In this document: piece by piece, positions 2,275 through 15,785 of the stretch
How the letters are laid out: each line of letters opens with the position of its first letter
How positions within the stretch are numbered: position 1 is the first letter of the stretch
Source: Verrucomicrobiota bacterium
Lineage (GTDB): Bacteria > Verrucomicrobiota > Verrucomicrobiia > Opitutales > Opitutaceae
NCBI GenBank assembly: GCA_025352985.1
Contig: JANXRL010000161.1
Location: 1-35,495 of the forward strand
Reading direction: 5' to 3'
DNA: 35,495 bases
Position numbers and translations under genes: made by a program
Notes under the pieces: generated by a model
Databases searched by the model: none
Told to the model about the DNA's origin: nothing
Seen by the model: only the letters and a program-made list of their open reading frames with translations

Positions 2275-2312
2275 AAGCGGAGATGCCCAATGGTTTTGAA
2301 GTTATCCCCCGT

Positions 2313-2930
2313 ATGAACCCCTCCCCTTGTCGTTCTATCCTGTCGTGGTGCGCGTTTGTCTTTGCGTCTGCACTGCCCATCTTTTCAGAAACTGCGACTC
2401 CAGCCGAAGTCGAGGTCACTGCAATCAAGTTCAACCCCATTCATCAGTCCAACAGCCAGTCAGTCTGGTATGAAAGCGATATTGAGCTCACGGCCAAGCC
2501 AGCGCCCGAAAACGGCAGGTTCACCGGCCGCGTCAAGGTCACGTTGAATGTCGGCATTGAGGCATCGTTGCCGGGCGGCAAGAAACAGATAAATATCTAT
2601 CGCGCCTCTGCTGAGTTGATCGCTCTCGAAGCAGGCAAGAGCAACGTGCGCTTTTATCTTCCCCCCGAGATCGTCAAGCGGGACATGGTAAGGGAGGTTA
2701 AGTATTATTTTGTCGAGCTGGGCGTTGGTGGCAAACCCATTCCCCCGACCAAGACCAGCGTGTCGTTCGCGACGCTGGGCGGTCCGGCGGTGCTGGAAAG
2801 TTTCCGCACAAAAGTAGCGTCTGACGCAGCTGCTAACGATGGCATTATGCTTCCTCAATACCTCACGCCATACATGTTTGATTCATCTCGTCCCACGCCT
2901 TCCTTTGTGCGGATGGAAAATACCCATTGA
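2313..2930 (+). CDS. Small exported protein of the pilus-like cassette (position of Amuc_1102)
   Basis: I place the start at the ATG at 2313 (205 residues) because it puts a signal-peptide-like segment at the N-terminus: SWCAFVFASALPIFSETA, followed by a polar mature region. An in-frame ATG at 2283 would add ten residues before it. The mature part is rich in alternating beta-strand-like stretches (VEVTAIKFNPIH, SVWYESDIELTAKP, GRVKVTLNVGIEA, VKYYFVELGVGG), consistent with a beta-sandwich, and has no membrane segment after the signal. It is the first gene of a same-strand block whose following members are PilM-, Amuc_1100-, Amuc_1099- and secretin-like. In Akkermansia muciniphila the equivalent position holds Amuc_1102, described as an exported Ig-like-fold protein. 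Assignment rests on position and general features; the biochemical role is unknown. Confidence 0.65.
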   Translation: MNPSPCRSILSWCAFVFASALPIFSETATPAEVEVTAIKFNPIHQSNSQSVWYESDIELTAKPAPENGRFTGRVKVTLNVGIEASLPGGKKQINIYRASAELIALEAGKSNVRFYLPPEIVKRDMVREVKYYFVELGVGGKPIPPTKTSVSFATLGGPAVLESFRTKVASDAAANDGIMLPQYLTPYMFDSSRPTPSFVRMENTH

Positions 2931-2932
2931 AC

Positions 2933-2953
2933 AGGCTGAATAAAATTCAGCTT
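2933..2953 (+). terminator. Intercistronic hairpin without a U-tract
   Basis: GCTGAAT (2935-2941) and ATTCAGC (2945-2951) form a perfect 7-bp stem around an AAA loop, extendable by two weaker pairs. It starts three bases after the stop codon of the exported-protein gene and ends before the PilM-like gene. The 3' side is TTGCACG, not a U-run, so it is more likely an RNA-stability or attenuation hairpin than a full terminator. Confidence 0.4.
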
Positions 2954-2994
2954 GCACGTGCCGAGTTGTTCTGAAATCGACTCATTTTTACCCT

Positions 2995-4713
2995 ATGTCT
3001 TCTTCTCGCGTCCTTGCTGTTGACAGTGGCGCCGGCCATGTTGCTTGCGGCGTATTCACGTCTTCTAAATCCGGTCGTCTTGTCTTGGAGCAATTCGATC
3101 TTGAATCGTTCAATCCAGACGCCGCGATCGAGTCGCAATGGACTGAAATGGTTTCCCATTCGTTGGCAGCGGTCACAAAGCGCGCCAGCCTTTCCGGTGC
3201 GGCTGTGTTGTGTGTGCCGGGGCACCAGACACTCACGAAGTTCGTCAAGACTCCCGCTGTCGAAAAATCGAAACGCGATAAAGTAATACATTTTGAAGCC
3301 CAGCAAAATATACCTTATCAGCTAAATGAGGTTGTTTGGGACCACCTCGCTGTCAGCGACGATGGCCTAGACCTTGAAGTAATGCTGGCTGCGGTGAAGT
3401 TGGATGTGATGGAGGAACTATGCGCTGCCATAAATGAGGGGGGCGTGTCCGTTAAGTCAGTCTCGCCCTCGGCTCTCACTCTCTATCGTTCCTTTAAGTA
3501 TAATTATCCTGAGGTTTCCGACGGCGTTTTGGTCGTTAGTATCGGAGCTCGTTCAACCAATTTACTGTTTATCGACAAAAACCGATTTTTTGTGCGAACC
3601 ATCGCGCAGGCGGGTAATAGTGTCACCCAAGCTATTTCCGATGAGATCAAGCAGGATTTCGTGCAGGTCGAATCCCTGAAAGTCCAAGTATTGTCTGGGC
3701 AAAGCGACTTGCCCGAGGCATCTCCAGCTCGCGCCACCGTGCTCAATGCTGCCCATGCGTTTGTGGCCCGGCTTCATCTCGAAATCACCCGTTCCACTGT
3801 AAATTACCGCCGTCAAAGCGGTGCCGAACAGCCTGTCTGCGTTTATGTTACCGGGGGTGGTGCGCTCATTCCCGAACTTATCCCGACATTAGGTGAGAAA
3901 CTCAAAATACGTGTCGAGCGATTTGATGCCCTGCGCAACGTGGATGTAGCTGCCGGTGCCGAGAGTGCCCGCGAGCATGCCGCCGTGTTGGCCGATCTAG
4001 TGGGTTTGGCTACCCGCCTTTCAAATAAAAGCGAACCCGCGTTTACCCTGCTTCCCCCCGCCTTGGTTAAAGGCATAGTCTTCGCAAAGCAGCAGCCCTT
4101 TTACGTGGGTGCAGCCGCTTTGGTGGCGGTTGCCCTGGTTCTACCTATGTGGAGCATCAATCAGCGCGCCGAGATTGCCGCCCTCCAAATCAAAACGATC
4201 GAAGCGCAGATGCAGCCTCTTCGGCAGCTCAAGGAAGTGAATGTGGCTAATCTCGACAAAATTGAGACGACCAAAAAAGAAGTCGTTGCGATACAAAGTC
4301 TCTTTGAGTCGAAATCCAACTGGATCAATTTTTTGACTGATCTCCAAGAGCGTCTCGTAAAGGTTGAGGACGTATGGTTGGAAAAACTGCAAGTCCTGCG
4401 CCCTACCGCAACAGAGTCTACGACCGCATCCACCGCTTCCGCCGGAGTTTTTGGCGGTGTGCCTGCCGGTCAGGGGGCCGCTCCGGTCGCAACCCCCGTT
4501 TTGCGTCTTAACGTAAGCGGACGCCTGCTCGATAAAAACAACCCGGTTTCCAAGGTGAGCCAGGATTCATATAACCGTGTTAAATCTCTGCTGGCCAGTT
4601 TCGCTGACGACAAGTTTATCGCGTCAGTCGAGAAAGAAAATTTTAACCCCAACCAGCCCGGTATTCTCAGTTTCGACTTCATCCTTGTGGTCGATTCCAA
4701 AAAACCGCTCTGA
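2995..4713 (+). CDS. PilM-like actin-fold ATPase fused to a PilN-like membrane segment (position of Amuc_1101)
   Basis: The 572-residue product looks like two pilus-assembly proteins joined. Residues about 5-345 form a PilM/FtsA-type actin-like ATPase: LAVDSGAGHVACGVF near the N-terminus (phosphate-1), LVVSIGARSTNLLFID near 180-195 (phosphate-2) and VYVTGGGALIPELI near 283-296 (adenosine motif). After a linker comes FTLLPP (from residue 350), resembling the PilN N-terminal NLLP motif that docks onto PilM. A single membrane segment follows (FYVGAAALVAVALVLPMW, about 369-386), then a charged coiled-coil-like stretch to about 450 and a periplasmic domain with an Ala/Thr/Gly-rich low-complexity patch. 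In Pseudomonas and Thermus type IV pilus systems PilM and PilN are separate proteins. The cassette lacks a separate PilN, which supports the fusion. Predicted location is the inner membrane, with the ATPase domain in the cytoplasm. No Shine-Dalgarno sequence is present. Confidence 0.85.
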   Translation: MSSSRVLAVDSGAGHVACGVFTSSKSGRLVLEQFDLESFNPDAAIESQWTEMVSHSLAAVTKRASLSGAAVLCVPGHQTLTKFVKTPAVEKSKRDKVIHFEAQQNIPYQLNEVVWDHLAVSDDGLDLEVMLAAVKLDVMEELCAAINEGGVSVKSVSPSALTLYRSFKYNYPEVSDGVLVVSIGARSTNLLFIDKNRFFVRTIAQAGNSVTQAISDEIKQDFVQVESLKVQVLSGQSDLPEASPARATVLNAAHAFVARLHLEITRSTVNYRRQSGAEQPVCVYVTGGGALIPELIPTLGEKLKIRVERFDALRNVDVAAGAESAREHAAVLADLVGLATRLSNKSEPAFTLLPPALVKGIVFAKQQPFYVGAAALVAVALVLPMWSINQRAEIAALQIKTIEAQMQPLRQLKEVNVANLDKIETTKKEVVAIQSLFESKSNWINFLTDLQERLVKVEDVWLEKLQVLRPTATESTTASTASAGVFGGVPAGQGAAPVATPVLRLNVSGRLLDKNNPVSKVSQDSYNRVKSLLASFADDKFIASVEKENFNPNQPGILSFDFILVVDSKKPL

Positions 4714-4726
4714 CCCCTGACTCTCC

Positions 4727-5737
4727 ATGGCCAGTTTTAAGTCCAATCCCATTTTTTGTTCCGCTCTTATAGTCATAGGGGTGGTCGTTGCCGGCGAGGG
4801 CTGGTGCATTTTTGAACGCAGTAGGGCGGTGCAAAAAAACCAAAAAATTCTCGTGCAAAAGCGCCGGGAACTCGCGGCTCTGCAAGAGGTGAATCCTTTT
4901 CCCAGTGAAGCAAATAAGGCGGCGGTCGAGGCGGATCTCGCTCGGACGCAGACCGCGCTTGCCACCATGCGCGAGGAACTCAAGGGCCGCGGACCCACTG
5001 CCGGTCAGCTCCGCAGCGCCAAAGTGCCGGCCGAGCCCACCGACGTGTTTTTCGACCTCGCCAATTTTGTTGAGAAGAATCGCGACAATGCGAAGCAGTT
5101 CGGAGTGAAAATAAAAGCCGACGAGCGTTTTGGCTTTTCTGCCTATTCCAGCGCAGGACCTGATCGTGAGTTGATCCCTCAGGTTTTCCGCCAGCGTCAA
5201 ATCGCCCAATACCTTATCGAAGCCCTTTTCAACGCACATCCCCGCGAACTATTTTCCCTCCAGCGCGAACGTCCCCGAACGAACGCGGAGATGGTTGCCA
5301 TCGCCTCCGGTCAACCCTTGCCCGTGACTGTCGGCGAGCCACGCTTGTCATCGGCGGACACCGATTTGTTTGAAATAGATTCACGTATTTCAGCGCGGGT
5401 GCCGGGTTTTGTTACAGCTACGGCTTTCCGCCTCACGTTTATCGGTGAGACGGAGTCCCTCCGCACCCTGCTCAACAAGCTGGCGACTTTTGAACTACCC
5501 TTGGTGGTGCGCAGCGTCGAAGTTGAACCGTCTGCAGGGACGACGTCGGTCGCTGAATCTGGCACCACGAATTCCCTGAGCACCATTTTTGGCAACACAT
5601 CCAGTGGCGTTGCAACCCCTGCGGGGCCGACAAAGCCAAAGCCTCTTGTAGCTAAAGTGCTTTCTAAATTCACCGTGACCATCGAGCTGATAGATCTCGT
5701 GTCCACCACCTCCACTGCAGCCACCCCGACTTCCTGA
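4727..5737 (+). CDS. PilO-like single-pass membrane protein (position of Amuc_1100)
   Basis: This 336-residue protein starts 13 bases after the PilM-like gene. A short cytoplasmic N-terminus is followed by one membrane segment (IFCSALIVIGVVVAGEGWCIF, about residues 9-29) and a long charged coiled-coil-like region rich in Lys/Glu/Gln to about residue 90. The rest is a soluble periplasmic part. That layout, short N-tail, transmembrane helix, coiled coil and mixed alpha/beta domain, is the layout of PilN/PilO and GspL/GspM proteins. In Akkermansia muciniphila the same gene position encodes Amuc_1100, about 317 residues, known for signalling through host TLR2 and reported to resemble such assembly-platform proteins. 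Homology is inferred from order, size and topology; no host-interaction role should be assumed here. It ends in a Thr/Ser-rich tail. The next gene begins one base after its stop, so translation may be coupled. Confidence 0.75.
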   Translation: MASFKSNPIFCSALIVIGVVVAGEGWCIFERSRAVQKNQKILVQKRRELAALQEVNPFPSEANKAAVEADLARTQTALATMREELKGRGPTAGQLRSAKVPAEPTDVFFDLANFVEKNRDNAKQFGVKIKADERFGFSAYSSAGPDRELIPQVFRQRQIAQYLIEALFNAHPRELFSLQRERPRTNAEMVAIASGQPLPVTVGEPRLSSADTDLFEIDSRISARVPGFVTATAFRLTFIGETESLRTLLNKLATFELPLVVRSVEVEPSAGTTSVAESGTTNSLSTIFGNTSSGVATPAGPTKPKPLVAKVLSKFTVTIELIDLVSTTSTAATPTS

Positions 5738-5738
5738 C

Positions 5739-6665
5739 ATGGCCGCCCAATCTCAAGAAAAAATCATCTTTGGTGCAGCCTTGCTGGCTTTGCTGGCGGC
5801 GGGAGCGTGGACGTTTTTACAGCTGCCCAAATTGGCGGCTCTACGCAAAGTTTCCTCATCCAGCACCGTCCAGGCGGCCTATGTGCCCGTAGGGCTCGAT
5901 GCCTCCAATGTTAGCACCAGCATTTGGCCAACCGCTCCTGCGCAGACGCGCGGGGCCGAATGGATTTACGACGTATTCACCCCTCCCGAGATTTACTACA
6001 ACGAGGCAACCAAGGAATTTAGCGTAACCCCGCCAACGACTCTCGTAGTTGAGAAGCCGGTGGAAATTCCGTTCGGACTTGAGCTTATTGAAATCAAGCA
6101 GGATGTTTTCCGCCTTCAACTTGTCGGCTACGTCGGCAATGTCGGTTCCTATCTAGGCACTTTCGAGAACACGGTGACCGGGGACACCTTCCTCGCTAAA
6201 GCCGGTAAAAAAGTTCCAACACTCGGGCTGACCGTGCGCGCGTTTGAGGTGAAGCGTAATTTGGTGCCCGCCAAGGACAGCATGCCGATCTACGAAACCA
6301 TAGCAACCGCCGTGGTGGTTGACGACAAGACCGGCGCCGAAATCATGCTGACCAACAAACAGCGCCTTATCAAGGGTTCGCCTATCGCCGTCCTCAAGGC
6401 GACCGGGAGCGACAAGTTGTTCGAACAAAAAGCGCAAACGTCATTCTCGGTCGGTGATGTCAATTACAGCGTAGGCGTCGTCGCGGCCGATCCTGCGGCG
6501 GTCGAGGTCACCAAGACCGCTCCGAGTTTGAAGTCGCCTGAGACCAAAACCCTGACCCTAAGCCAGCCTGTCGCGGCGCCCGCGGCTCCTGCGGCCGATG
6601 CATCCAAGCCCGATCAATCGGCGGCTGCGGCTCCGGTGGTTTTCCCTCCGATGTCAGCTCCTTAA
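5739..6665 (+). CDS. Membrane-anchored periplasmic protein of the pilus-like cassette (position of Amuc_1099, PilP-like role)
   Basis: The product has 308 residues. An N-terminal membrane anchor (IIFGAALLALLAAGAWTFL, about 9-27) precedes a periplasmic region. Its middle part contains beta-rich motifs such as FGLELIEIKQDVFRLQLVGY and GDTFLAKAGKKVPTLGL, which resemble the small beta-sandwich of inner-membrane-to-secretin connector proteins (PilP/GspC HR-type). The C-terminal 60 residues are an Ala/Pro-rich, probably unstructured tail. The gene begins one base after the stop of the Amuc_1100-like gene and precedes the secretin gene by 61 bases, the usual place for PilP next to PilQ. I did not see a lipobox, so it is anchored by a helix, unlike lipoprotein PilP. 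The connector role is inference from position and topology. Confidence 0.65.
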   Translation: MAAQSQEKIIFGAALLALLAAGAWTFLQLPKLAALRKVSSSSTVQAAYVPVGLDASNVSTSIWPTAPAQTRGAEWIYDVFTPPEIYYNEATKEFSVTPPTTLVVEKPVEIPFGLELIEIKQDVFRLQLVGYVGNVGSYLGTFENTVTGDTFLAKAGKKVPTLGLTVRAFEVKRNLVPAKDSMPIYETIATAVVVDDKTGAEIMLTNKQRLIKGSPIAVLKATGSDKLFEQKAQTSFSVGDVNYSVGVVAADPAAVEVTKTAPSLKSPETKTLTLSQPVAAPAAPAADASKPDQSAAAAPVVFPPMSAP

Positions 6666-6726
6666 AAACGTCATTTTACCATCGCATCTCCTCTTTTCCA
6701 ATCTACATCTACAGAGCATCCCCTAA

Positions 6727-9525
6727 ATGAAAAAGCTAACGCTCCCCAAAACCCTCCTTGTCCTGCTGGTCGCCCCGGCAATGCTGGCTCTCGTGTTGCC
6801 AGCAGGTCGCCTAATGGCCCAAAGCCAGACAGAGACCAAAATTCGCCTCATGGCTGACGCTCTCCGTGCGCGTGATGGCGGTGATCTAGATACCGCTAAG
6901 AAGAATCTCGAGGAACTGCTGGCCCTAGCCCCGAACGACGCCACGGTGCAGCGTCTTTTGAGTGGTGTGAACACGTCGCTTGAGACCAAGGCATTGTCTC
7001 CGGCGCCCGTGGTTGCAGCAGCGGTTGCCCCGGCTTTGGCTGAACCGGTAGAAGTTACTTTTCCCAAGCCTACTGCCCCCGCCCCTCAGCCGATTGTTCA
7101 GACGCCCGAGCAGGCCGCCGCCGCCCAAGCCGATATGCTTGCGAAACAGGAGAACGAGCGGATCAAGGGCCTGATTCAAGATGCTTCAGCGAAACGATCC
7201 GAGGCCCGTCGCTTCGCCAAGGACGGACGCTTTGATGATGCCGCCGCCGTTCTTGACGCCGCCGCAAAACCCATTCCCGTCAATCCCGCCACTAAGAGCA
7301 CGCTGGCCGCTATTCAGTCTGAAAAGAACTCGCTGCTGCTTGAAAAATCCCACTATCTGCTCGATCAAGGAGATACTGATGGTGCTCATGCCGCCATCGA
7401 GGCCTATCGCGCTGCTTCGGCTGACACCAAGAAAGCCGATAAGTTTTCCCGAAAAATTGACAGTATTGAATTGAATCCGTCGATGCCAGCCATCGATCCC
7501 AAGTCCAAGTTCATCGTTGATCAGAAGGAGATCGCAAAGCTGGTGGCCAAAGGTCGCGGACAATATCTCGCGGCCGACGTCGATGGCGCACAGGAAACCT
7601 TCCGCCTTGTCGAGTCGATCGATGCAACCAACCCTGAGGCTAAAAGCTTCCTCACGCGTATTGCCGATGAAAAAGCGAAAATAGGCGTGCTGAATCGTTC
7701 CAAGACTCGCGCGCAGATGGTCGAGGAGGTGACAAATGCTTGGGCACGTCCCAGTGTTTACATTGAGCGCGGCGGAGACAGCACGGGAACGAGAAACGGT
7801 TCCACGCCGCTCGCTCAGAAACTGAACTCGATTCTGATTCCCAGCGTAAACTTCCAAGGCGTGGAGCTGAGCAAGGTTGTCAGCACCCTCACCGCTATTT
7901 CCGAGGAATATGACAAGAGCGAAGGCGCCAAGGGCGTAAACATTGTTCTGCTCGATCCGAGCAACAAAAATCCTTCGGTCAGCATCACCCTGCGCAATCT
8001 TTCGTTGAAGCGTATTCTTGATTTCATAACCGACTCCACTGGTTACCAATATGAAATCCAGGCCGATGCCATCGTGCTCCGGCCCGGTGGTGAGACGAGC
8101 ACGCTCGATACCGCATTCTTCCCGGTCACTCGCTCCACGGTTATCCGCATGACAGGTGTCGGCAGCTCGACAGGCGCTTCGACCTCGGCTGGCGCTGCAG
8201 ATCCATTTGCTGCAGCACCTGCCGCAGGTGCTGCGACAGGTGGTGGCGGCTCTGGCAATGGTGATGCAGGCTCCTTGAAGGCGTTTCTGCAACAGGCCGG
8301 TGTTAACTTCGAAGGCACGCCGGGTTCAAGTTTGGCGTATGATGGTGCTGCCATCATCGTTACCCAGTCCAACCGTAATATTGAGCGTATCCGTAATATT
8401 CTCAACCGTTACAACGATGTTCGTCAGGTTGAGATCGAGGCCAAATTCATGGATGTCCAAGACGGAGCGTTGGATGAACTGGGCGTTGATTGGACTGCTT
8501 CCGGGCACGGTGTCCCCCAATACAATGCCACAACGGGAGCGACTATCTTGGGCTCTGATGGCAAACAACTTCAGACGTATAACCAGCAATACGCCAGCAA
8601 CAACCGTTCCTTGAACGGGACTTTTTCTAGTGCAGCTAGTTCCGCCGGTGGCAGTATCAATCAGCAGTCGTTCATTACTGGAGCGGTCAGCACTATCCCG
8701 ATCATCAATTCCGCACCGAGCCTTCCCGGTGGTGTTAATTTGGGTGCTGGTGCTAATTCATTGGGAGTCATCACTGGGGTGATCGGAGACTTTAACGTGA
8801 ATGCCACCATTCGCGCCCTTTCCCAGAAGCAAGGAACCGATTTGCTCAGCGCTCCCAAGGTCACTGTTCTCTCAGGGAATCCAGCCAACATCGTTGTGGC
8901 CCAAGAACTGCGCTATCCTCAGAGCTATGGTGAAGTGCAAAGCCAAGTCGGCACCGGATCCAACGGCGGCGGTGCAGCCGGTGTCACGATTACTGCTGGG
9001 ACACCGCAAGAATTTACTATGCGCAATGTCGGTGTCGAACTCAAGGTTACTCCTACGGTTGAAGAAGACGACTACAGCATCAGCCTCGATCTCGATCCCA
9101 AGGTCACAGAGTTTGAAGGTTTCGTAGAATACGGTGGCCAGAGCGTGGCCATTTCAGGTTCCACCACGGTCACGGTGCCATCCGGCTTCTTCCAGCCGAT
9201 TTTCTCGACCCGTGAGGTTACCACCAAGGTTACCGTTTGGGATGGTGCGACCCTCGTTATGGGTGGATTGACGCGCGAAGAAGTCAAAAAGACCAACGAT
9301 AAGGTTCCTATCCTTGGAGATATTCCCTTCATCGGCCGCGCGTTCCGCTCAAAGGGCGAATCCACTCAGAAGCGTAACTTGCTGATTTTTGTTACCGCCA
9401 ACCTCGTGAGCCCCGGCGGCTCCCCCAAGAAACAGCAGCTGCGGAGCGTAGCACCGGCGTCTATGTTCCAGAATCCAACGATCGTCACTCCTGGCAGTGC
9501 CGAATCACGTGTTCGCTCCAAGTAA
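6727..9525 (+). CDS. PilQ/GspD-type outer-membrane secretin (position of Amuc_1098)
   Basis: The 932-residue precursor begins with a signal peptide (LPKTLLVLLVAPAMLALVLP, likely cut after LMA at about 31). Residues about 40-330 are helical and TPR-like (ALRARDGGDLDTAKKNLEELL and similar), an unusual N-terminal extension instead of AMIN domains. About 360-455 is a secretin N0/STN-like domain (SILIPSVNFQGVELSKVVSTL; ITLRNLSLKRILDFITDSTG). About 460-565 is an N1-type domain with a Gly/Ala-rich insertion, ending IIVTQSNRNIERIRNILNRY. The secretin core follows, with LLSAPKVTVLSGNPANIVV and the signature VTVWDGATLVMGGLTREE. After it come KVPILGDIPFIGRAFRSKG and the terminal LLIFVTANLVSPGG. It would form a multimeric gated channel in the outer membrane. 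It closes the five-gene cassette. No Shine-Dalgarno sequence precedes the ATG. Confidence 0.93.
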   Translation: MKKLTLPKTLLVLLVAPAMLALVLPAGRLMAQSQTETKIRLMADALRARDGGDLDTAKKNLEELLALAPNDATVQRLLSGVNTSLETKALSPAPVVAAAVAPALAEPVEVTFPKPTAPAPQPIVQTPEQAAAAQADMLAKQENERIKGLIQDASAKRSEARRFAKDGRFDDAAAVLDAAAKPIPVNPATKSTLAAIQSEKNSLLLEKSHYLLDQGDTDGAHAAIEAYRAASADTKKADKFSRKIDSIELNPSMPAIDPKSKFIVDQKEIAKLVAKGRGQYLAADVDGAQETFRLVESIDATNPEAKSFLTRIADEKAKIGVLNRSKTRAQMVEEVTNAWARPSVYIERGGDSTGTRNGSTPLAQKLNSILIPSVNFQGVELSKVVSTLTAISEEYDKSEGAKGVNIVLLDPSNKNPSVSITLRNLSLKRILDFITDSTGYQYEIQADAIVLRPGGETSTLDTAFFPVTRSTVIRMTGVGSSTGASTSAGAADPFAAAPAAGAATGGGGSGNGDAGSLKAFLQQAGVNFEGTPGSSLAYDGAAIIVTQSNRNIERIRNILNRYNDVRQVEIEAKFMDVQDGALDELGVDWTASGHGVPQYNATTGATILGSDGKQLQTYNQQYASNNRSLNGTFSSAASSAGGSINQQSFITGAVSTIPIINSAPSLPGGVNLGAGANSLGVITGVIGDFNVNATIRALSQKQGTDLLSAPKVTVLSGNPANIVVAQELRYPQSYGEVQSQVGTGSNGGGAAGVTITAGTPQEFTMRNVGVELKVTPTVEEDDYSISLDLDPKVTEFEGFVEYGGQSVAISGSTTVTVPSGFFQPIFSTREVTTKVTVWDGATLVMGGLTREEVKKTNDKVPILGDIPFIGRAFRSKGESTQKRNLLIFVTANLVSPGGSPKKQQLRSVAPASMFQNPTIVTPGSAESRVRSK

Positions 9526-9574: not shown

Positions 9575-9592
9575 GCATTTTTTTTAAAATGC
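9575..9592 (+). other. AT-rich hairpin overlapping the upstream candidate start
   Basis: GCATTTT (9575-9581) and AAAATGC (9586-9592) are perfect complements around a TTTT loop. The 3' arm contains the ATG at 9589. If the transcript from the secretin gene reads through, this stem would hide that ATG, which favours the in-frame ATG at 9607 as the real start. It is not a convincing terminator, because no U-run follows the stem. Confidence 0.35.
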
Positions 9593-9606
9593 TTATTTCA
9601 AAAATC

Positions 9607-12600
9607 ATGAAAATCATTAATTTTATTACAATGCTGGGTATAGCATTGTTTGGGTTGTTAGGCACGGCCAATGCCCAGGCGACTCGATTTCTTGTCACCG
9701 AAGCGGGCACATCCAATGCTGTTGGAACTACCCCCATACAAGCTGGTTCACCGTTTAGCGTAAAGATAGCGGCCGTAGATTCGTCTGGGAATGTGGTTAC
9801 CTCCTATAACCAGTCGGTGACCATTACTTTGCCGGAACCACGACTACCTAATTATAGCTGGGCTAAGGTTACGGCTAATTTGGTAAATGGCTTGGTGGAT
9901 AATGTTGTTCTAAATCCCATTCACGGTGGCAAATCAGATCGGCGAATTGCTGTCACGGATGGAAATATCGCAACGTATGATGCGACGCAATTGCCAAGTG
10001 CGCAGAACGGATTGTTTACCATTAGCCCTAATTACTTTGTTGTTACGCAAGCTGGCTCAAGCATCAGTAATCTTCGGAATAATTATGTAGATGGCCAAAC
10101 CGCCGATGTCAGGGTCATCGCCCTAAACTCTGATGGAACGGTCGATGAAACTTACGTCGGTATAGTCACGCTCGCATCCAATTCCGGATTGTTTGCCGAC
10201 GTTAATGTATTTTTTAGCGGCCTTACCAATGGCGTAGTCGATAGTTACGGAAAGATTGCGTTTAACGGAAGCGGCAGTGATTCCATAAGTGCTTCGGATA
10301 ATTCTGCAGTTGGGGTCTTTACCTTCGATGCATCCGCGACATTTACAGTTTTAGATAGTGTGGCGACGATTGGAACGACCGCAAATGTTGATCGTCTTGT
10401 CATAAGCGCGGTCAGCGCTTCAGGTGTTAACCCCGGTCAGTTTACTACAATAAAATTTACTGCCACCAACCCGGCAAGCGGCACCAAAGGTGATAATAAT
10501 AATCCAACGATACCTCCTACTAATGTAACTGGGCCTGTTGATTTTACGATCACCATTAGAGATTCGTCGAATGTGTTAATAACCTCCATTTTTTACAGGT
10601 ATAACGGAAATATAAATGGCGACTTTGCAAATCCGACTACCCGAGCTCTTCAAGCCGATGTTCTTATTCCAGACTCGGTAACCCCGGGAACATTTACCGT
10701 TGATGTTACGGCGGTGCAAACGGGTTCGGGGTCATTGGCGGTTGGTGGAACACCTGATCTTCAAATAACGCGCTTGGATTATGCTCCGGGGGAATATCGC
10801 GGGGGTGAAGCCTTGCGTTTTGATATGGCATGGATCAATCGGACACTAACTACTAATTCGCGTAATTCCAAGGTCATCATTGCTTCCTTCTATCGTGTTG
10901 AAATTCACCTTTCCGCCAATTCTGTTTTTGGTGATTCGGATGATGTTCTGGTTTGGGCAGGGACATTTGCGGGAAATCAGTTGGGAAGTGAATTACTACC
11001 TGGTCAGTCCGTCACACTAAACGATGCAATTTTACTTCCTAAAAATCTACCCGGTAGTTTTTTCCTTTTGGCCAAAATTAACAGTGCCGGTGGAAGGGTG
11101 AGCACAACTGATGTTACTCAAAATTTTTCATCTGGATTCAAAGAGACAATCGGTCCAAAGCCAACTAATGTTTATAGTGACGGCAATGATATTTTGTTAG
11201 GTGCCGAAGACGCGAAATTAACTCTTCTTCCTGAGCAAAATTCCGAAACACATCGCATCAGTTTAATCAATAATATGACGGAAGCAGATACAGGTGCTCA
11301 ATCGTCCGGACTCAGCGACCAACCTGCCATCAGTCAAGACGGCCGTTACACTGTTTTCCAAAGCCAAGGTTCATTCGGTTCTGGGACAGTTCAGGCTAAT
11401 ACATATAACATTTTTATTCGTGATGCGTTGCTCAATAAAACAACGTTACTTTCCTCATCCGCAAGCAAAGGAGCGGCTAACGGAGACAGCATCAACTCAC
11501 GCATGAGCAGTGATGCAAAGTATGTAGTATACCAATCTGCTGCTACCAATATAAGAAACGCCGATAATAACGGGTATACCGATATATTTATTTGTGATAC
11601 GCTTAATTCAAATACCATTAGATTGACGCCCTCCAGTTCAGTTCAAGCAAATCAGGGATCTTTTCTTCCCGATATCAGTGGAAATGGCCGTTTTGTAGTA
11701 TTCGAATCAACTGCGACCAATATTATAACTGGAGCAAATTCACTGGGGCGGCGTCAAGTGTATCTCTATGATCGTGATGTCAGTGGATCGGGTGTTTATG
11801 ATACTGCCGGTAATACAAAATATACCCTTGTTTCGAAAACACTCGGCGGTGTCACTGGCAATGGAGACAGCGCGACTCCGCGGATTTCTAGGGATGGTAA
11901 CTATGTGGTCTTTAGCACTAAAGCACCTAATCTTATCGGCGGAATATCTCCGTTTTCTCAAGTAGTAAGATGGGAACGTGCGACTGGGAAAATACTCACA
12001 ACTTCAACTAATATCGGGGCGACGTTCGCAGATGGTGATACTGCTTATCCTATCATAAATGCTAATGGTGCATATGTCGTTTTCGCGTCGCGTGCCAAAA
12101 ACCTAACTGCGGATTTAAGTCAAGTTGGTGTCCCTCACCTATTCAGGGCTGGAATTGTTTCCGGAGTGGTAACATCTGTAATTCGGATTAACGGGTATAC
12201 CGGAGCCGCTGCGGCCGCATCTATCGATTCTACTGGGGTTGTGGATTCGATTTCGATCACTAATGCAGGTTCTAGTTATACAACTGCGCCGATTGTTACT
12301 ATTACTGGTGGCGGCGGAACTGGAGCGACTGCAACCGCTCAAATTGATGTTTTTACGGGCAGAGTGATCGATGTTTCCGTTACCAACGGTGGTTCTGGTT
12401 ATACCTCAATGCCGGTTGTCACGGTTGGCTCGCTTGGGGCGACCGAACCTAATAACCCTGACTTCGGCTATATTGCAATGCCGGATCTGGGCAGTTTTGA
12501 ACCAACAGTTTCGGACGACGGAATGCTTGTTGCTTACGTTAGTGAATCCGTGAATTTGCTGCCGCCAGTGCCTGTTCACCATATTGATCGCAGCACTTAT

Positions 12601-14847
12601 CAAAGTTCCTCGGTTCAAAACTATGAGGATCGAAATGGTTGGTCAGATGTTTATATTTCGGATCTTAGCAATCCCTTGGTTCCTACCAATAAGCGGGCGT
12701 CGATCAGTAGTTTTGGCTATGAAGCAACTCCATACGGCGTAGATGGCTTGGGAACACTCCAATCCCTTTCCTCTCGTGCTCCCGCGATGTCAGGGAACGG
12801 TCGTTACGTAGCTTTTGCCTCCGACGCAAAGGGGCATAATGGATTGATTTTTGGTGTTACTAACTTTGACTATTTGGCCACGAATAGCGTAAAAGATATT
12901 TATATATACGATAACAAGGTTGGTTTGCCTGCAAATGTCGCTGACCTCCCAATTGTAGTAAGTGCCATGGATGCAAATGTTACAACCAGTGCCAATTTAT
13001 CTCTCCCGCTGGTTGCGACGGCAAGTAGCTCCTATCGGCAAATCTCATCAGTCGAGTTTTATGCTGACGGGCTTCTTGTAAGCACTGTCAACCAGCCCAC
13101 GTCGACGGCGAGTGGCCGATTTGTAGGGACATGGGATATGTCGGTGTTGGGAATTTCTGTTCTCAGGACATTTATCATAACTGCGGTTGCGATTGATTCA
13201 TTCGGTCAACGTTCGCTTGAGACTCAAATATCTAACGTGACGGTAAACCCGGTTATAGGTTTGCTCCCCAATGTTGTTATCACAAATCCGGTCTTGGGAA
13301 CTCGTTCCAGCGTAACGACAACAACGGTATCCACCCTATTGTTGAGCGCGACTGCATCCGACTCCGACGGGGCGGTTACCTCGCTTGGATTTTATATGGA
13401 TGGGACTTTGATTGCCGTGGGAGTTCGTGATGGCACGACTTTTAATTACAAGGCTTTTTATTCGATTGCCAATCCTGCATTGGGTGCTCCCTTGGCTGTG
13501 GGCACGCATTCGCTAACTGCAAAGGTTGCCGATAATTCAGGTAATGCTGTGATTTCGGCGACTGTTCCTGTAAGTATTGTTGCCGCATCGGGACCTGCCT
13601 CTACGGTCGTAGTTAAGCCTGTATCCGCAAACATTGATCTTACAAATAAGCAAACGATCACTGTAATTGCTTCACCAGGGGCTGGTGGGGTTATAAATAA
13701 TGTGGTTGTTTACGCCAATGGTTTGATCATTGGTTCATACTCCAATGTCGATCGAGTTCTTTTTCCTCTAATAGTCGGTGATTACACTCAGACATTTTCC
13801 TATATACCCACCACAACGGGGATAATTAATCTCTATGCTGTGGTTACTGATTATGATAATAATTCCAATATTAGCACCTTTTCAGGTTTTACGGTGAATC
13901 CTAACATAGTTAATGTTAACGTGGGTGGAGCTTACCAAGGTTTGCTTTTGCGTGATCCGACTAATTCGGAAGTGCAAGCGGCCATCAAGTTATACGGAGG
14001 TAATCCAACGGAAGCACAGTCTGCACTTCTTGTTGCACAATCATCTGAATTTAGAGATAATGGTGGCAATATCCTTCTTGATTACCTTGGTGTCTGGGGA
14101 AGATTTCCTACTTACGATGAATATTCGACATTGCTGGGCGAGCGACTTTTAGCCGCGATCGATACTGATATCGTTGGTGCACTTCTCGCCTCCGCCGATT
14201 ACAAGTATTTGTATGGAGACCTTAACGATCTCATGATCACCCGGTTTGCCCAATATGGATTAATTAAAAAATTCGCAGTTCGTAGCTACATGAACCTAAG
14301 TGGCGTGGGTTCTGGTCTCGTAAACTCAAATACTGTCGCGCAGACTTTCTTCAATAGCATCTCCACGAATAAGCAGACTCCTACAGTCGCTCTAGTTAAT
14401 TATATTTCTGCTAACTTCACGGGAACTAAGTCGAAAACTGCAGGAACAAAGTTGAGGATTGCCGGGTTAATCTTGAATCTTTCAAATAATGTTCCCACTT
14501 CGGACGAGGTAAATGGTTTGGCTACGGTTCCGCTGGATAGTATCGCCCAATATTATTCAACGGGGGTTTCTCCTACAAAATTCAAACCAGTCATTGCGGA
14601 AAAACCTGCGGCCATCAAAACTTCGATAGGTGGATCTGCGACTTTCAAAGTTCGTGCAGTTGGTTGGCCTGCCCCAACCTTGCAGTGGTATAAGAAGGGA
14701 AAAAAGACCGTCTTGATCCCTGGGGCTTCATCGAGCAGCTATGTTATTCCTAATGTGGCGAGCGGGGATGTCGCCCAGTATTATGTGACGGTTAAGAATT
14801 CTTCCGGCTCAGTTTCGTCGACACCGGTCGCTTTGACGATCCAGTAA
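9607..14847 (+). CDS. Very large exported protein: Ig-like, seven-blade TolB-type propeller and DUF4214-like domains
   Basis: Starting at the ATG at 9607 (1,746 residues) gives a clean signal peptide, MKIINFITMLGIALFGLLG, ending TANA. An in-frame ATG at 9589 adds six residues. Residue numbers here count from 9589. About 30-560 are beta-rich Ig/invasin-like segments. Seven blades of a TolB/WD40-like propeller follow, each marked by a line such as DGRYTVFQSQ (584), AKYVVYQSAATN, NGRFVVFESTATN (698), DGNYVVFSTKAPN, NGAYVVFASRAKN, DGMLVAYVSESVN (977) and NGRYVAFASDAKG (1070). Two Gly-rich repeats interrupt it at about 868-950. Then come three bacterial Ig-like domains with VEFYADGLLVST-type strands (1123-1437), a helical DUF4214-like part opening YQGLLLRDPTNSEVQAAI (about 1446-1657) and a final Ig-like domain (1668-1752). 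No LPXTG, PEP-CTERM or other sorting tail is visible. Base composition is much AT-richer than in neighbouring genes. The function is unknown; a surface or secreted adhesion or scaffold role is inference. Confidence 0.85.
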   Translation: MKIINFITMLGIALFGLLGTANAQATRFLVTEAGTSNAVGTTPIQAGSPFSVKIAAVDSSGNVVTSYNQSVTITLPEPRLPNYSWAKVTANLVNGLVDNVVLNPIHGGKSDRRIAVTDGNIATYDATQLPSAQNGLFTISPNYFVVTQAGSSISNLRNNYVDGQTADVRVIALNSDGTVDETYVGIVTLASNSGLFADVNVFFSGLTNGVVDSYGKIAFNGSGSDSISASDNSAVGVFTFDASATFTVLDSVATIGTTANVDRLVISAVSASGVNPGQFTTIKFTATNPASGTKGDNNNPTIPPTNVTGPVDFTITIRDSSNVLITSIFYRYNGNINGDFANPTTRALQADVLIPDSVTPGTFTVDVTAVQTGSGSLAVGGTPDLQITRLDYAPGEYRGGEALRFDMAWINRTLTTNSRNSKVIIASFYRVEIHLSANSVFGDSDDVLVWAGTFAGNQLGSELLPGQSVTLNDAILLPKNLPGSFFLLAKINSAGGRVSTTDVTQNFSSGFKETIGPKPTNVYSDGNDILLGAEDAKLTLLPEQNSETHRISLINNMTEADTGAQSSGLSDQPAISQDGRYTVFQSQGSFGSGTVQANTYNIFIRDALLNKTTLLSSSASKGAANGDSINSRMSSDAKYVVYQSAATNIRNADNNGYTDIFICDTLNSNTIRLTPSSSVQANQGSFLPDISGNGRFVVFESTATNIITGANSLGRRQVYLYDRDVSGSGVYDTAGNTKYTLVSKTLGGVTGNGDSATPRISRDGNYVVFSTKAPNLIGGISPFSQVVRWERATGKILTTSTNIGATFADGDTAYPIINANGAYVVFASRAKNLTADLSQVGVPHLFRAGIVSGVVTSVIRINGYTGAAAAASIDSTGVVDSISITNAGSSYTTAPIVTITGGGGTGATATAQIDVFTGRVIDVSVTNGGSGYTSMPVVTVGSLGATEPNNPDFGYIAMPDLGSFEPTVSDDGMLVAYVSESVNLLPPVPVHHIDRSTYQSSSVQNYEDRNGWSDVYISDLSNPLVPTNKRASISSFGYEATPYGVDGLGTLQSLSSRAPAMSGNGRYVAFASDAKGHNGLIFGVTNFDYLATNSVKDIYIYDNKVGLPANVADLPIVVSAMDANVTTSANLSLPLVATASSSYRQISSVEFYADGLLVSTVNQPTSTASGRFVGTWDMSVLGISVLRTFIITAVAIDSFGQRSLETQISNVTVNPVIGLLPNVVITNPVLGTRSSVTTTTVSTLLLSATASDSDGAVTSLGFYMDGTLIAVGVRDGTTFNYKAFYSIANPALGAPLAVGTHSLTAKVADNSGNAVISATVPVSIVAASGPASTVVVKPVSANIDLTNKQTITVIASPGAGGVINNVVVYANGLIIGSYSNVDRVLFPLIVGDYTQTFSYIPTTTGIINLYAVVTDYDNNSNISTFSGFTVNPNIVNVNVGGAYQGLLLRDPTNSEVQAAIKLYGGNPTEAQSALLVAQSSEFRDNGGNILLDYLGVWGRFPTYDEYSTLLGERLLAAIDTDIVGALLASADYKYLYGDLNDLMITRFAQYGLIKKFAVRSYMNLSGVGSGLVNSNTVAQTFFNSISTNKQTPTVALVNYISANFTGTKSKTAGTKLRIAGLILNLSNNVPTSDEVNGLATVPLDSIAQYYSTGVSPTKFKPVIAEKPAAIKTSIGGSATFKVRAVGWPAPTLQWYKKGKKTVLIPGASSSSYVIPNVASGDVAQYYVTVKNSSGSVSSTPVALTIQ

Positions 14848-14900: not shown

Positions 14901-15785
14901 ATGTCTAAATGGCTCCTTGTTGACGGATTTAATCTGGCCTACCGCTGTTTTTTTGCGGTGCCGGAACTCACCCGTGCGGACGGGTTCCCCACCAACGCTC
15001 TGCATGGCTGGGTGAAGTCACTTTGGCGCCTGGCCGATCAAGAGAAGCCTGCCGCGACGCTAGTTTTCTTCGATCTTGGCGGGGCACAGGATCGCTTGGC
15101 TTTGCATCCCGAATATAAGGCGCAGCGCGCAGAGATGCCGGAGGCACTTCAAAAGCAGATTGAGCCATTGAAGGCGCTCACTCGCGCGATGGGTCATGTC
15201 GGAATCGAACAGGAAGGAGTTGAGAGCGATGATTTGCTGGCTTCGCAGGCAGTGGCCTTGGCTCGACAAGGTCACGATGTATTGATCGTGAGCGCGGACA
15301 AGGACTTCGCTCAGATCGTTAGCGAACATATTAAAATTCTGCTGCCGCCGCCTTCAGCCAACCCCAAGTTGGGTTGGCGTGTGCTGGACGTCGCCGGGGT
15401 CACGGAAAAATTCGGGGTGCCGCCCTCCCAGATCGCAGACTATCTGGCGTTGGTTGGGGACGCTTCAGACAATATTCCCGGCGTTACCGGAGTTGGTCCC
15501 AAGACGGCATCCAAGTGGTTGCAGGAGTTCAGAAACGTTGAAGAAGTCATAGCGCACGCAGCTAGCTTAAAACCGGAACGCTTTCAGGAAGCGGTGCGCA
15601 ACGGAGCGGGCAACATCCGCCGTAATCTCAAGCTGACGACGCTCAACCTAGATTTGCCTACTGTGAAAGCGGAAATCACCGAGGTGCGCCCTCAACAACT
15701 TTTGGCCCTGTTGGAAGAGATGGAAATGAAATCCAGTCTTGCGGAGGCGCGCGCGCGCTATGAACAACCCGAGTTATTTTTTTAG
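14901..15785 (+). CDS. Stand-alone 5'-3' exonuclease (PolA N-terminal domain family)
   Basis: The product (294 residues) matches the 5'-nuclease domain of DNA polymerase I without the polymerase part, acting on flaps and RNA primers. It opens WLLVDGFNLAYRCFFAVPEL, giving the metal-binding aspartate of the PIN-like fold. EQEGVESDDLLASQAV and VLIVSADKDFAQIV carry the other acidic metal ligands. The helix-three-turn-helix DNA-binding region follows as YLALVGDASDNIPGVTGVGPKTASKWL. Length and motif order fit the family throughout. The start must be at or very near 14901, because conserved residues begin at codon 3, and that ATG directly follows a terminator U-run with no leader. A full-length polA may exist elsewhere; this could be a paralogue or a dedicated primer-removal enzyme. 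Confidence 0.9.
   Translation: MSKWLLVDGFNLAYRCFFAVPELTRADGFPTNALHGWVKSLWRLADQEKPAATLVFFDLGGAQDRLALHPEYKAQRAEMPEALQKQIEPLKALTRAMGHVGIEQEGVESDDLLASQAVALARQGHDVLIVSADKDFAQIVSEHIKILLPPPSANPKLGWRVLDVAGVTEKFGVPPSQIADYLALVGDASDNIPGVTGVGPKTASKWLQEFRNVEEVIAHAASLKPERFQEAVRNGAGNIRRNLKLTTLNLDLPTVKAEITEVRPQQLLALLEEMEMKSSLAEARARYEQPELFF

What the first reader, a model, noticed from the sequence alone, without database searches (positions are those of the whole stretch)
2313..9525. Complete Amuc_1098-1102-type type IV pilus-like cassette in a second Verrucomicrobiota lineage
Five same-strand genes encode, in order, a small exported beta-rich protein, a PilM-like ATPase, a PilO-like membrane protein, a helix-anchored periplasmic protein and a PilQ-like secretin. 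The order and protein types match the Akkermansia Amuc_1102-1098 locus, whose Amuc_1100 product is known for TLR2 signalling. A flanking region full of ordinary free-living metabolism suggests the locus has an ancestral envelope function that predates any host role. No pilin, PilB/PilT motor or PilC platform is nearby, so it may be a motor-less trans-envelope complex or use a motor encoded elsewhere.
Basis: partly seen in the sequence, partly recalled or inferred. Interest (0 to 1): 0.72.

Follow-up and report, generated by a model that had tools for sequence, protein, structure and literature searches.

The report
Phylum-wide type IV pilus envelope cassette
This Opitutaceae genome carries the five-gene set known from the gut bacterium Akkermansia (source of the immune-active protein Amuc_1100); it is the cell-envelope half of a type IV pilus machine that almost the whole phylum has, and its motor is encoded elsewhere in the genome.

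Summary
Genes at 2283-9525 are orthologous, one by one and in order, to Amuc_1102-1101-1100-1099-1098. The cassette is phylum-wide: its PilM gene scores E<1e-20 in 217 of 241 Verrucomicrobiota genomes. In 60 sampled loci, the core four genes are in order in 58 and all five in 51. Domain by domain it is a PilM-PilN fusion, PilO (the Amuc_1100 orthologue), a PilP-fold protein (Amuc_1099) and a PilQ secretin, plus the Amuc_1102-like exported protein.

It is not motor-less at genome level. The genome has a PilB'-PilT-PilB-PilC operon on another contig. In related genomes the same operon lies directly beside the cassette, once with minor pilins. Across 103 Opitutales genomes the cassette tracks that PilC (p=6e-15), while a second, canonical PilMNOPQ operon tracks a different PilC (p=7e-25).

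Most likely it is the trans-envelope alignment and secretin complex of an ancestral verrucomicrobial type IV pilus. Attachment and large-glycan capture, as proposed for the Akkermansia MUL2 locus, is plausible but untested here. Synteny inside Verrucomicrobiales was already published, so novelty is moderate.

The parts
2283..2930 (+). g1, Amuc_1102 (MUL2A) orthologue: exported, beta-rich protein (start 2313 also possible); no prepilin motif seen
   Evidence: Profile of 54 orthologues hits solved Amuc_1102 7dsz at 1.8e-43 (the profile includes Akkermansia rows). Opitutales-only versus Verrucomicrobiales-only profiles: 97.1%, 5e-11.
2995..4713 (+). g2, Amuc_1101 orthologue: PilM actin-like domain (residues about 1-343) fused through one transmembrane helix (about 370-388) to a PilN domain
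   Evidence: NF045709 2.1e-106; PilM_2; Myxococcus PilM 1.2e-19. hhalign: N part = canonical PilM 97.6%, C part = canonical PilN 97.9%, 3.9e-13.
4727..5737 (+). g3, Amuc_1100 orthologue = PilO-type inner-membrane-anchored periplasmic protein
   Evidence: NF038287 8.7e-18. AF2 model pLDDT 88.5; VIA-align Amuc_1100 Z 17.9, PilO Z 8.5 / 7.9 / 7.0. hhalign to canonical PilO 96%, 4e-9.
5739..6665 (+). g4, Amuc_1099 orthologue: N-terminal TM helix plus periplasmic PilP-fold beta domain (about 112-276) with an inserted small beta subdomain
   Evidence: AF2 pLDDT 85.3. The top five VIA-align chains are all PilP, Z 8.5-7.3; next unrelated 4.9. Sequence profile to PilP is weak (7%).
6727..9525 (+). g5, Amuc_1098 / PilQ-type secretin
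   Evidence: NF042912 5e-132; Secretin PF00263 3.9e-38 and STN.

Best explanation
The cassette encodes the trans-envelope (alignment plus outer-membrane) half of an ancestral verrucomicrobial type IV pilus machine. The PilM half of gene 2 sits in the cytoplasm, covalently tied to a membrane-anchored PilN half. PilO (gene 3, the Amuc_1100 orthologue) pairs with it in the inner membrane and periplasm. The PilP-fold protein (gene 4) bridges to the secretin (gene 5), through which the pilus leaves. Gene 1 is an exported accessory of the same complex. The motor (PilB', PilT, PilB), the platform PilC and the pilins are encoded at other places in this genome. Shown here by sequence, structure prediction and co-occurrence: homologies, domain make-up, conserved order, vertical inheritance, and the pairing with one PilC type. 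Inferred: the physical complex, a retractable filament, and its use in attachment and glycan capture.
For: Domain assignments. Order in 58/60 (core four; the other two loci are truncated) and 51/60 (all five) loci from families across the phylum. Motor operon PilB'-PilT-PilB-PilC on G000 contig C10. The same operon is contiguous with the cassette in G157 and G015 (the latter with minor pilins between), and a PilB-PilB-PilT-PilC operon lies just downstream in G055. Opitutales co-occurrence of cassette with the C10-type PilC is 58/5/7/33, p=5.8e-15, against canonical PilM with the C71-type PilC 44/4/0/55, p=7e-25. Joint switches occur inside several families (f1, f4, f60, f62, f67). Akkermansia genomes hold exactly one PilC protein, in a PilB-PilB-PilC locus. 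The seven phylum genomes without any PilC domain are all among those without the cassette.
Against: The motor is not adjacent in this genome. Five Opitutales have the cassette without a detected C10-type PilC and seven the reverse. Which pilin is used is unknown (no pilin-body match). Gene 1 is not detected in 7 of 60 loci. PilP identity rests on a predicted fold, not sequence. Co-occurrence counts are not independent of phylogeny. No filament was observed.
Confidence: 0.86

Rival explanations
1. A motor-less trans-envelope complex (structural bridge or channel) that works without PilB/PilC.
For: No motor, platform or pilin gene in the window contig. A few genomes have the cassette without a C10-type PilC (G060, G247, G245, G248, G289).
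Against: No cassette-positive genome of 241 lacks PilC altogether. The motor operon is contiguous in several genomes. Strong pairing with one PilC type.
Confidence: 0.05
2. The cassette is the envelope part of a type II secretion system (PilM-PilN fusion like GspL, PilP fold like GspC HR, GspD-type secretin) that secretes enzymes.
For: GspL also joins a PilM-like and a PilN-like part (established knowledge); weak GspL hit (29 bits) and GspD hit (145 bits). Minor pilins of GspH/I/J type lie upstream in G015 and G187.
Against: Both T2SS scores are below curated cut-offs (65 and 351). The genome has a separate T2SS-like GspD-E-F cluster with pseudopilins on C21. The paired motor operon contains PilT, a retraction-type ATPase. 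The gene 4 fold ranks PilP first.
Confidence: 0.09
3. The machine's main job is DNA uptake (natural transformation).
For: T4P and secretin are competence parts elsewhere (established knowledge); a stand-alone 5'-3' exonuclease gene is a conserved neighbour.
Against: That exonuclease is the only one found in the genome and so probably serves replication. ComEC/ComEA were not searched. In A. muciniphila the locus is tied to mucin use (PMC13174399).
Confidence: 0.08
4. The cassette serves large-glycan attachment and uptake (MUL2-like) as its general function across the phylum. This is a claim about use, compatible with the pilus machine of the best explanation.
For: PMC13174399: MUL2 (amuc_1099-1102) proposed for particle attachment and glycan capture in Akkermansiaceae, synteny conserved. 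The present cassette is orthologous.
Against: Not tested in Opitutaceae; the cassette also occurs in lineages of unknown diet.
Confidence: 0.45

Closest known systems
Akkermansia muciniphila Amuc_1098-1102 (MUL2) locus
   Same: Five orthologous genes in the same order; all five profiles match across orders
   Different: Sequence below NCBIfam equivalog cut-offs (357/650, 65/180, 442/750 bits). Here the genome also has a second, canonical PilMNOPQ operon and a separate T2SS-like cluster. A 1752-aa surface protein follows the secretin.
Type IVa pilus alignment complex PilM-PilN-PilO-PilP-PilQ (Myxococcus, Pseudomonas, Neisseria)
   Same: PilM, PilN, PilO, PilP-fold and PilQ present in that order
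   Different: PilM and PilN fused in one chain; the PilP-fold protein has a TM helix and an inserted beta subdomain instead of being a lipoprotein; extra Amuc_1102-like gene first; long secretin N-terminus with TPR-like stretch; motor operon elsewhere.
Canonical PilMNOPQ operon of the same genome (G000 contig C132)
   Same: Same five functions in the same order
   Different: Separate PilM and PilN, PilO and PilP about 45% shorter (187 and 170 aa), and it tracks a different PilC (C71 type) across Opitutales.
Type II secretion GspL-GspM-GspC-GspD
   Same: GspL also joins PilM-like and PilN-like parts; secretin
   Different: Scores below T2SS cut-offs; paired motor operon includes PilT.

Membership tests
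Amuc_1098-1102 (MUL2) cassette | Five same-strand genes in the order 1102-1101-1100-1099-1098 | tested here: met
Amuc_1098-1102 (MUL2) cassette | Each gene orthologous to its Akkermansia counterpart | tested here: met
   Opitutales-only profiles hit the right gene in L114/L115 (g1 weakest, 2e-3 / 2e-4); profile-profile 97.1-100%
NCBIfam equivalogs NF045709, NF038287, NF042912 | Score above the curated cut-off | tested here: not met
   357 of 650, 64.8 of 180, 441.6 of 750 bits. Only 22 of 241 phylum genomes pass for NF045709, so these models are narrow. Not filed as an equivalog, only as an orthologue of the wider cassette family.
Amuc_1098-1102 (MUL2) cassette | Role in mucin or large-glycan use | not testable with these tools
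   Literature only (PMC13174399, PMC5332112)
Type IVa pilus alignment complex | PilM actin-like cytoplasmic protein | tested here: met
   PilM_2 77.6 bits over cut-off 27; TIGR01175 83 bits, below its 133 cut-off; 3jc8 PilM 1e-19
Type IVa pilus alignment complex | PilN | tested here: met
   As the C-terminal domain of gene 2: 97.9%, 3.9e-13
Type IVa pilus alignment complex | PilO | tested here: met
   Profile 96%, 4e-9; PilO Z 8.5 (2.3 A over 93 residues)
Type IVa pilus alignment complex | PilP | tested here: met
   Fold only: top five chains are PilP, Z 8.5-7.3; sequence profile not significant; a TM helix instead of a lipoprotein signal
Type IVa pilus alignment complex | PilQ secretin | tested here: met
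   PF00263 131 bits, STN 30.6 bits
Type IVa pilus machine | PilB, PilT, PilC and pilins in the genome | tested here: met
   not adjacent here, adjacent in G015, G157, G055
Type IVa pilus machine | Assembles and retracts a filament | not testable with these tools
   Needs experiment
Type II secretion system | GspL and GspD above curated cut-offs | tested here: not met
   28.9 of 65 and 144.8 of 351 bits

The most novel reading that the evidence does not exclude
The cassette defines a distinct, phylum-specific branch of type IV filament machines (PilM-PilN fusion, PilP-fold anchor with insertion, Amuc_1102 accessory, dedicated PilB'-PilT-PilB-PilC motor). Its ancestral job in Verrucomicrobiota is binding and pulling in large glycans; mucin uptake in Akkermansia is one specialisation, and Amuc_1100 is an inner-membrane PilO rather than a pilus surface protein.
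Probability: 0.3. Interest if true: 0.7.

Novelty: new member of a known kind. Interest (0 to 1): 0.42.

Why it matters
It places the much-studied immunomodulatory protein Amuc_1100 as the PilO part of an ancient pilus machine found across Verrucomicrobiota. That predicts inner-membrane/periplasmic location (so host contact would need vesicles, lysis or pasteurisation) and makes non-gut relatives usable for testing what the machine does. It also shows that Opitutales can carry two parallel type IV pilus systems with separate platform proteins.

Tried and rejected
Motor-less complex: rejected as the main reading because of the motor operon, its contiguity in relatives and the co-occurrence data. 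T2SS: scores below cut-offs and a separate T2SS-like cluster exists. Idea that gene 1 is a pilin: no prepilin motif, ordinary Sec-like N-terminus. The weak BslA hydrophobin hit of gene 1 (E=0.15) and the flagellin-like PDB hit of gene 4 (no single stretch significant) were taken as chance. Foldseek alone gave no significant hit for gene 4; the VIA-align second look gave PilP. Pilin matching between G000 and the pilins beside the G015/G187 cassettes gave no body hits. Promoter and terminator scan not informative. The genome-contig scan with one protein found only three relatives but named the family.

Full report
WHAT WAS CHECKED. The window is the whole of contig C118 of a 2.88 Mb, 92% complete genome. 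Its nearest named relative, 80% identical over gene 2, is an Opitutaceae MAG. NCBIfam gives Amuc_1101 family (2e-106), Amuc_1100 family (9e-18) and Amuc_1098 family (5e-132) for genes 2, 3 and 5, all below the curated equivalog cut-offs, and nothing for genes 1 and 4. So plain family search supports only three of five.

ORTHOLOGY OF ALL FIVE. I took 60 loci around the PilM homologue from genomes of many families of the phylum and grew a profile for each gene from the window sequence. The profiles recovered gene 1 in 53, gene 2 in 60, gene 3 in 60, gene 4 in 59 and gene 5 in 58 loci. The core four are in order on one strand in 58 loci, and the other two are short contig ends; all five are in order in 51. 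The loci were chosen because they have a good PilM hit, so these fractions describe conserved order, not prevalence. To avoid circularity, profiles from Opitutales only were searched against the other loci: every hit under 1e-3 fell on the expected gene, and all five were found in the Akkermansia loci L114/L115, with gene 1 weakest (2e-3 and 2e-4). Opitutales against Verrucomicrobiales profile-profile scores are 97.1, 100, 99.8, 98.5 and 100%; mismatched pairs give 1.1% or less. L114 carries Amuc_1100 itself. Profiles of all rows hit solved Amuc_1102 (7dsz, 1.8e-43) and Amuc_1100 (6lad, 8.9e-58) (those profiles include Akkermansia rows).

DOMAIN IDENTITIES. Gene 2 is not only PilM: residues 1-343 match the canonical PilM of the same genome's second operon (97.6%), a TM helix follows at about 370, and the rest matches canonical PilN over nearly its whole length (97.9%, 4e-13). 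Gene 3 matches canonical PilO (96%); its AlphaFold model (pLDDT 88.5) aligns to Amuc_1100 at Z 17.9 and next to PilO at Z 8.5. Gene 4 has no sequence family; its model (pLDDT 85.3) has a TM helix and a beta domain, and the five best chains are all PilP (Myxococcus, Neisseria, Pseudomonas; Z 8.5-7.3, next unrelated 4.9). Z near 8 can be a common arrangement, but five of five top hits from the expected neighbour of PilO and PilQ, in the expected gene position, is more than that. Gene 5 is a secretin with STN and TPR-like parts. The cassette is therefore a PilMN-PilO-PilP-PilQ set with an Amuc_1102-like gene in front.

HOW WIDESPREAD. In 241 Verrucomicrobiota genomes the Amuc_1101 model matches in 233 at E<=0.001. 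By my count from that table 217 are below 1e-20; the rest are FtsA-level scores or none. The gene 2 tree has Opitutales as one clade (100) and follows taxonomy overall, so vertical inheritance is the simplest reading and the cassette predates the sampled orders. PMC13174399 (2026) reported synteny of amuc_1099-1102 (MUL2) in Akkermansiaceae, often in other Verrucomicrobiales, less in Chthoniobacterales and not in Methylacidiphilales; it did not report Opitutales or the rest of the phylum in the text read here.

THE MOTOR. This genome has PilT-PilB-PilC on contig C10, preceded by the C-terminal end of another PilB cut by the contig start. The same PilB'-PilT-PilB-PilC operon lies directly upstream of the cassette in G157, and upstream with pilin genes between in G015; in G055 a PilB-PilB-PilT-PilC operon follows the cassette. 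Akkermansia-type genomes have exactly one PilC protein (two T2SSF domains), in a PilB-PilB-PilC locus. Among 103 Opitutales genomes I scored four features. Cassette and C10-type PilC: both 58, cassette only 5, PilC only 7, neither 33 (p=6e-15). Canonical PilM (C132) and C71-type PilC: 44, 4, 0, 55 (p=7e-25). The crossed pairs are weak (p=0.04 and 0.54). Genomes are related, so the p-values overstate; but cassette and C10-type PilC are gained or lost together inside families f1, f4, f60, f62 and f67. Phylum-wide, the seven genomes with no PilC domain, in two families, are all cassette-negative. So there are two parallel type IV pilus systems in this genome, and the cassette belongs to the one with the C10 motor.

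MECHANISM. Shown: homologies, order, domain fusion, pairing with a motor type. Inferred: PilB and PilT drive extension and retraction through PilC; the PilMN fusion, PilO and PilP-fold protein align the base; the secretin lets the fibre out; gene 1 is an exported accessory. Function in attachment and glycan capture is carried over from Akkermansia work (PMC5332112; PMC13174399) and was not tested. One consequence: Amuc_1100 as PilO should sit in the inner membrane facing the periplasm, whereas PMC5332112 reports it outside the cell by immunofluorescence; this conflict is testable.

VERDICT. Known kind, new member in a new order with useful clarifications. Interest moderate.

Noticed in passing
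window 14901-15785: Stand-alone 5'-3' exonuclease (DNA polymerase I N-terminal type) is the only such gene found in this genome, and its homologue directly follows the secretin in many families of the phylum. It suggests a split PolA and an ancient fixed neighbour.
   Followed up: partly
L118, L119, L136, L141, L142, L143, L145, L146, L147: Several lineages carry two secretin genes in tandem at the end of the cassette; meaning unknown.
   Followed up: no
window 9589-14847: 1752-aa exported protein with Ig-like and PD40 repeats sits between secretin and exonuclease; partly similar proteins follow the secretin in relatives L091 and L093.
   Followed up: no
L072:669-5058 (G000 contig C132): A second, canonical PilM-N-O-P-Q operon, followed by a very large protein; tracks a different PilC across Opitutales.
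   Followed up: yes
window 5739-6665 versus alignment A3: Most relatives of gene 4 hold a DxDxDGF...TxPxDxxxxP motif (calcium-loop-like) which the Opitutaceae copy lacks (consensus).
   Followed up: no
L180:8820-12126, L190:9199-11499: Minor-pilin sets (GspH/I/J/K-like) directly upstream of the cassette in family f20.
   Followed up: partly
G000 contigs C57, C124, C70, C76, C116: Extra PilB-like and PilT-like ATPases without neighbouring pilus genes.
   Followed up: no
L093, L094, L104, L107, L117, L120, L147: Gene 1 (Amuc_1102-like) not detected in front of an otherwise complete cassette.
   Followed up: no
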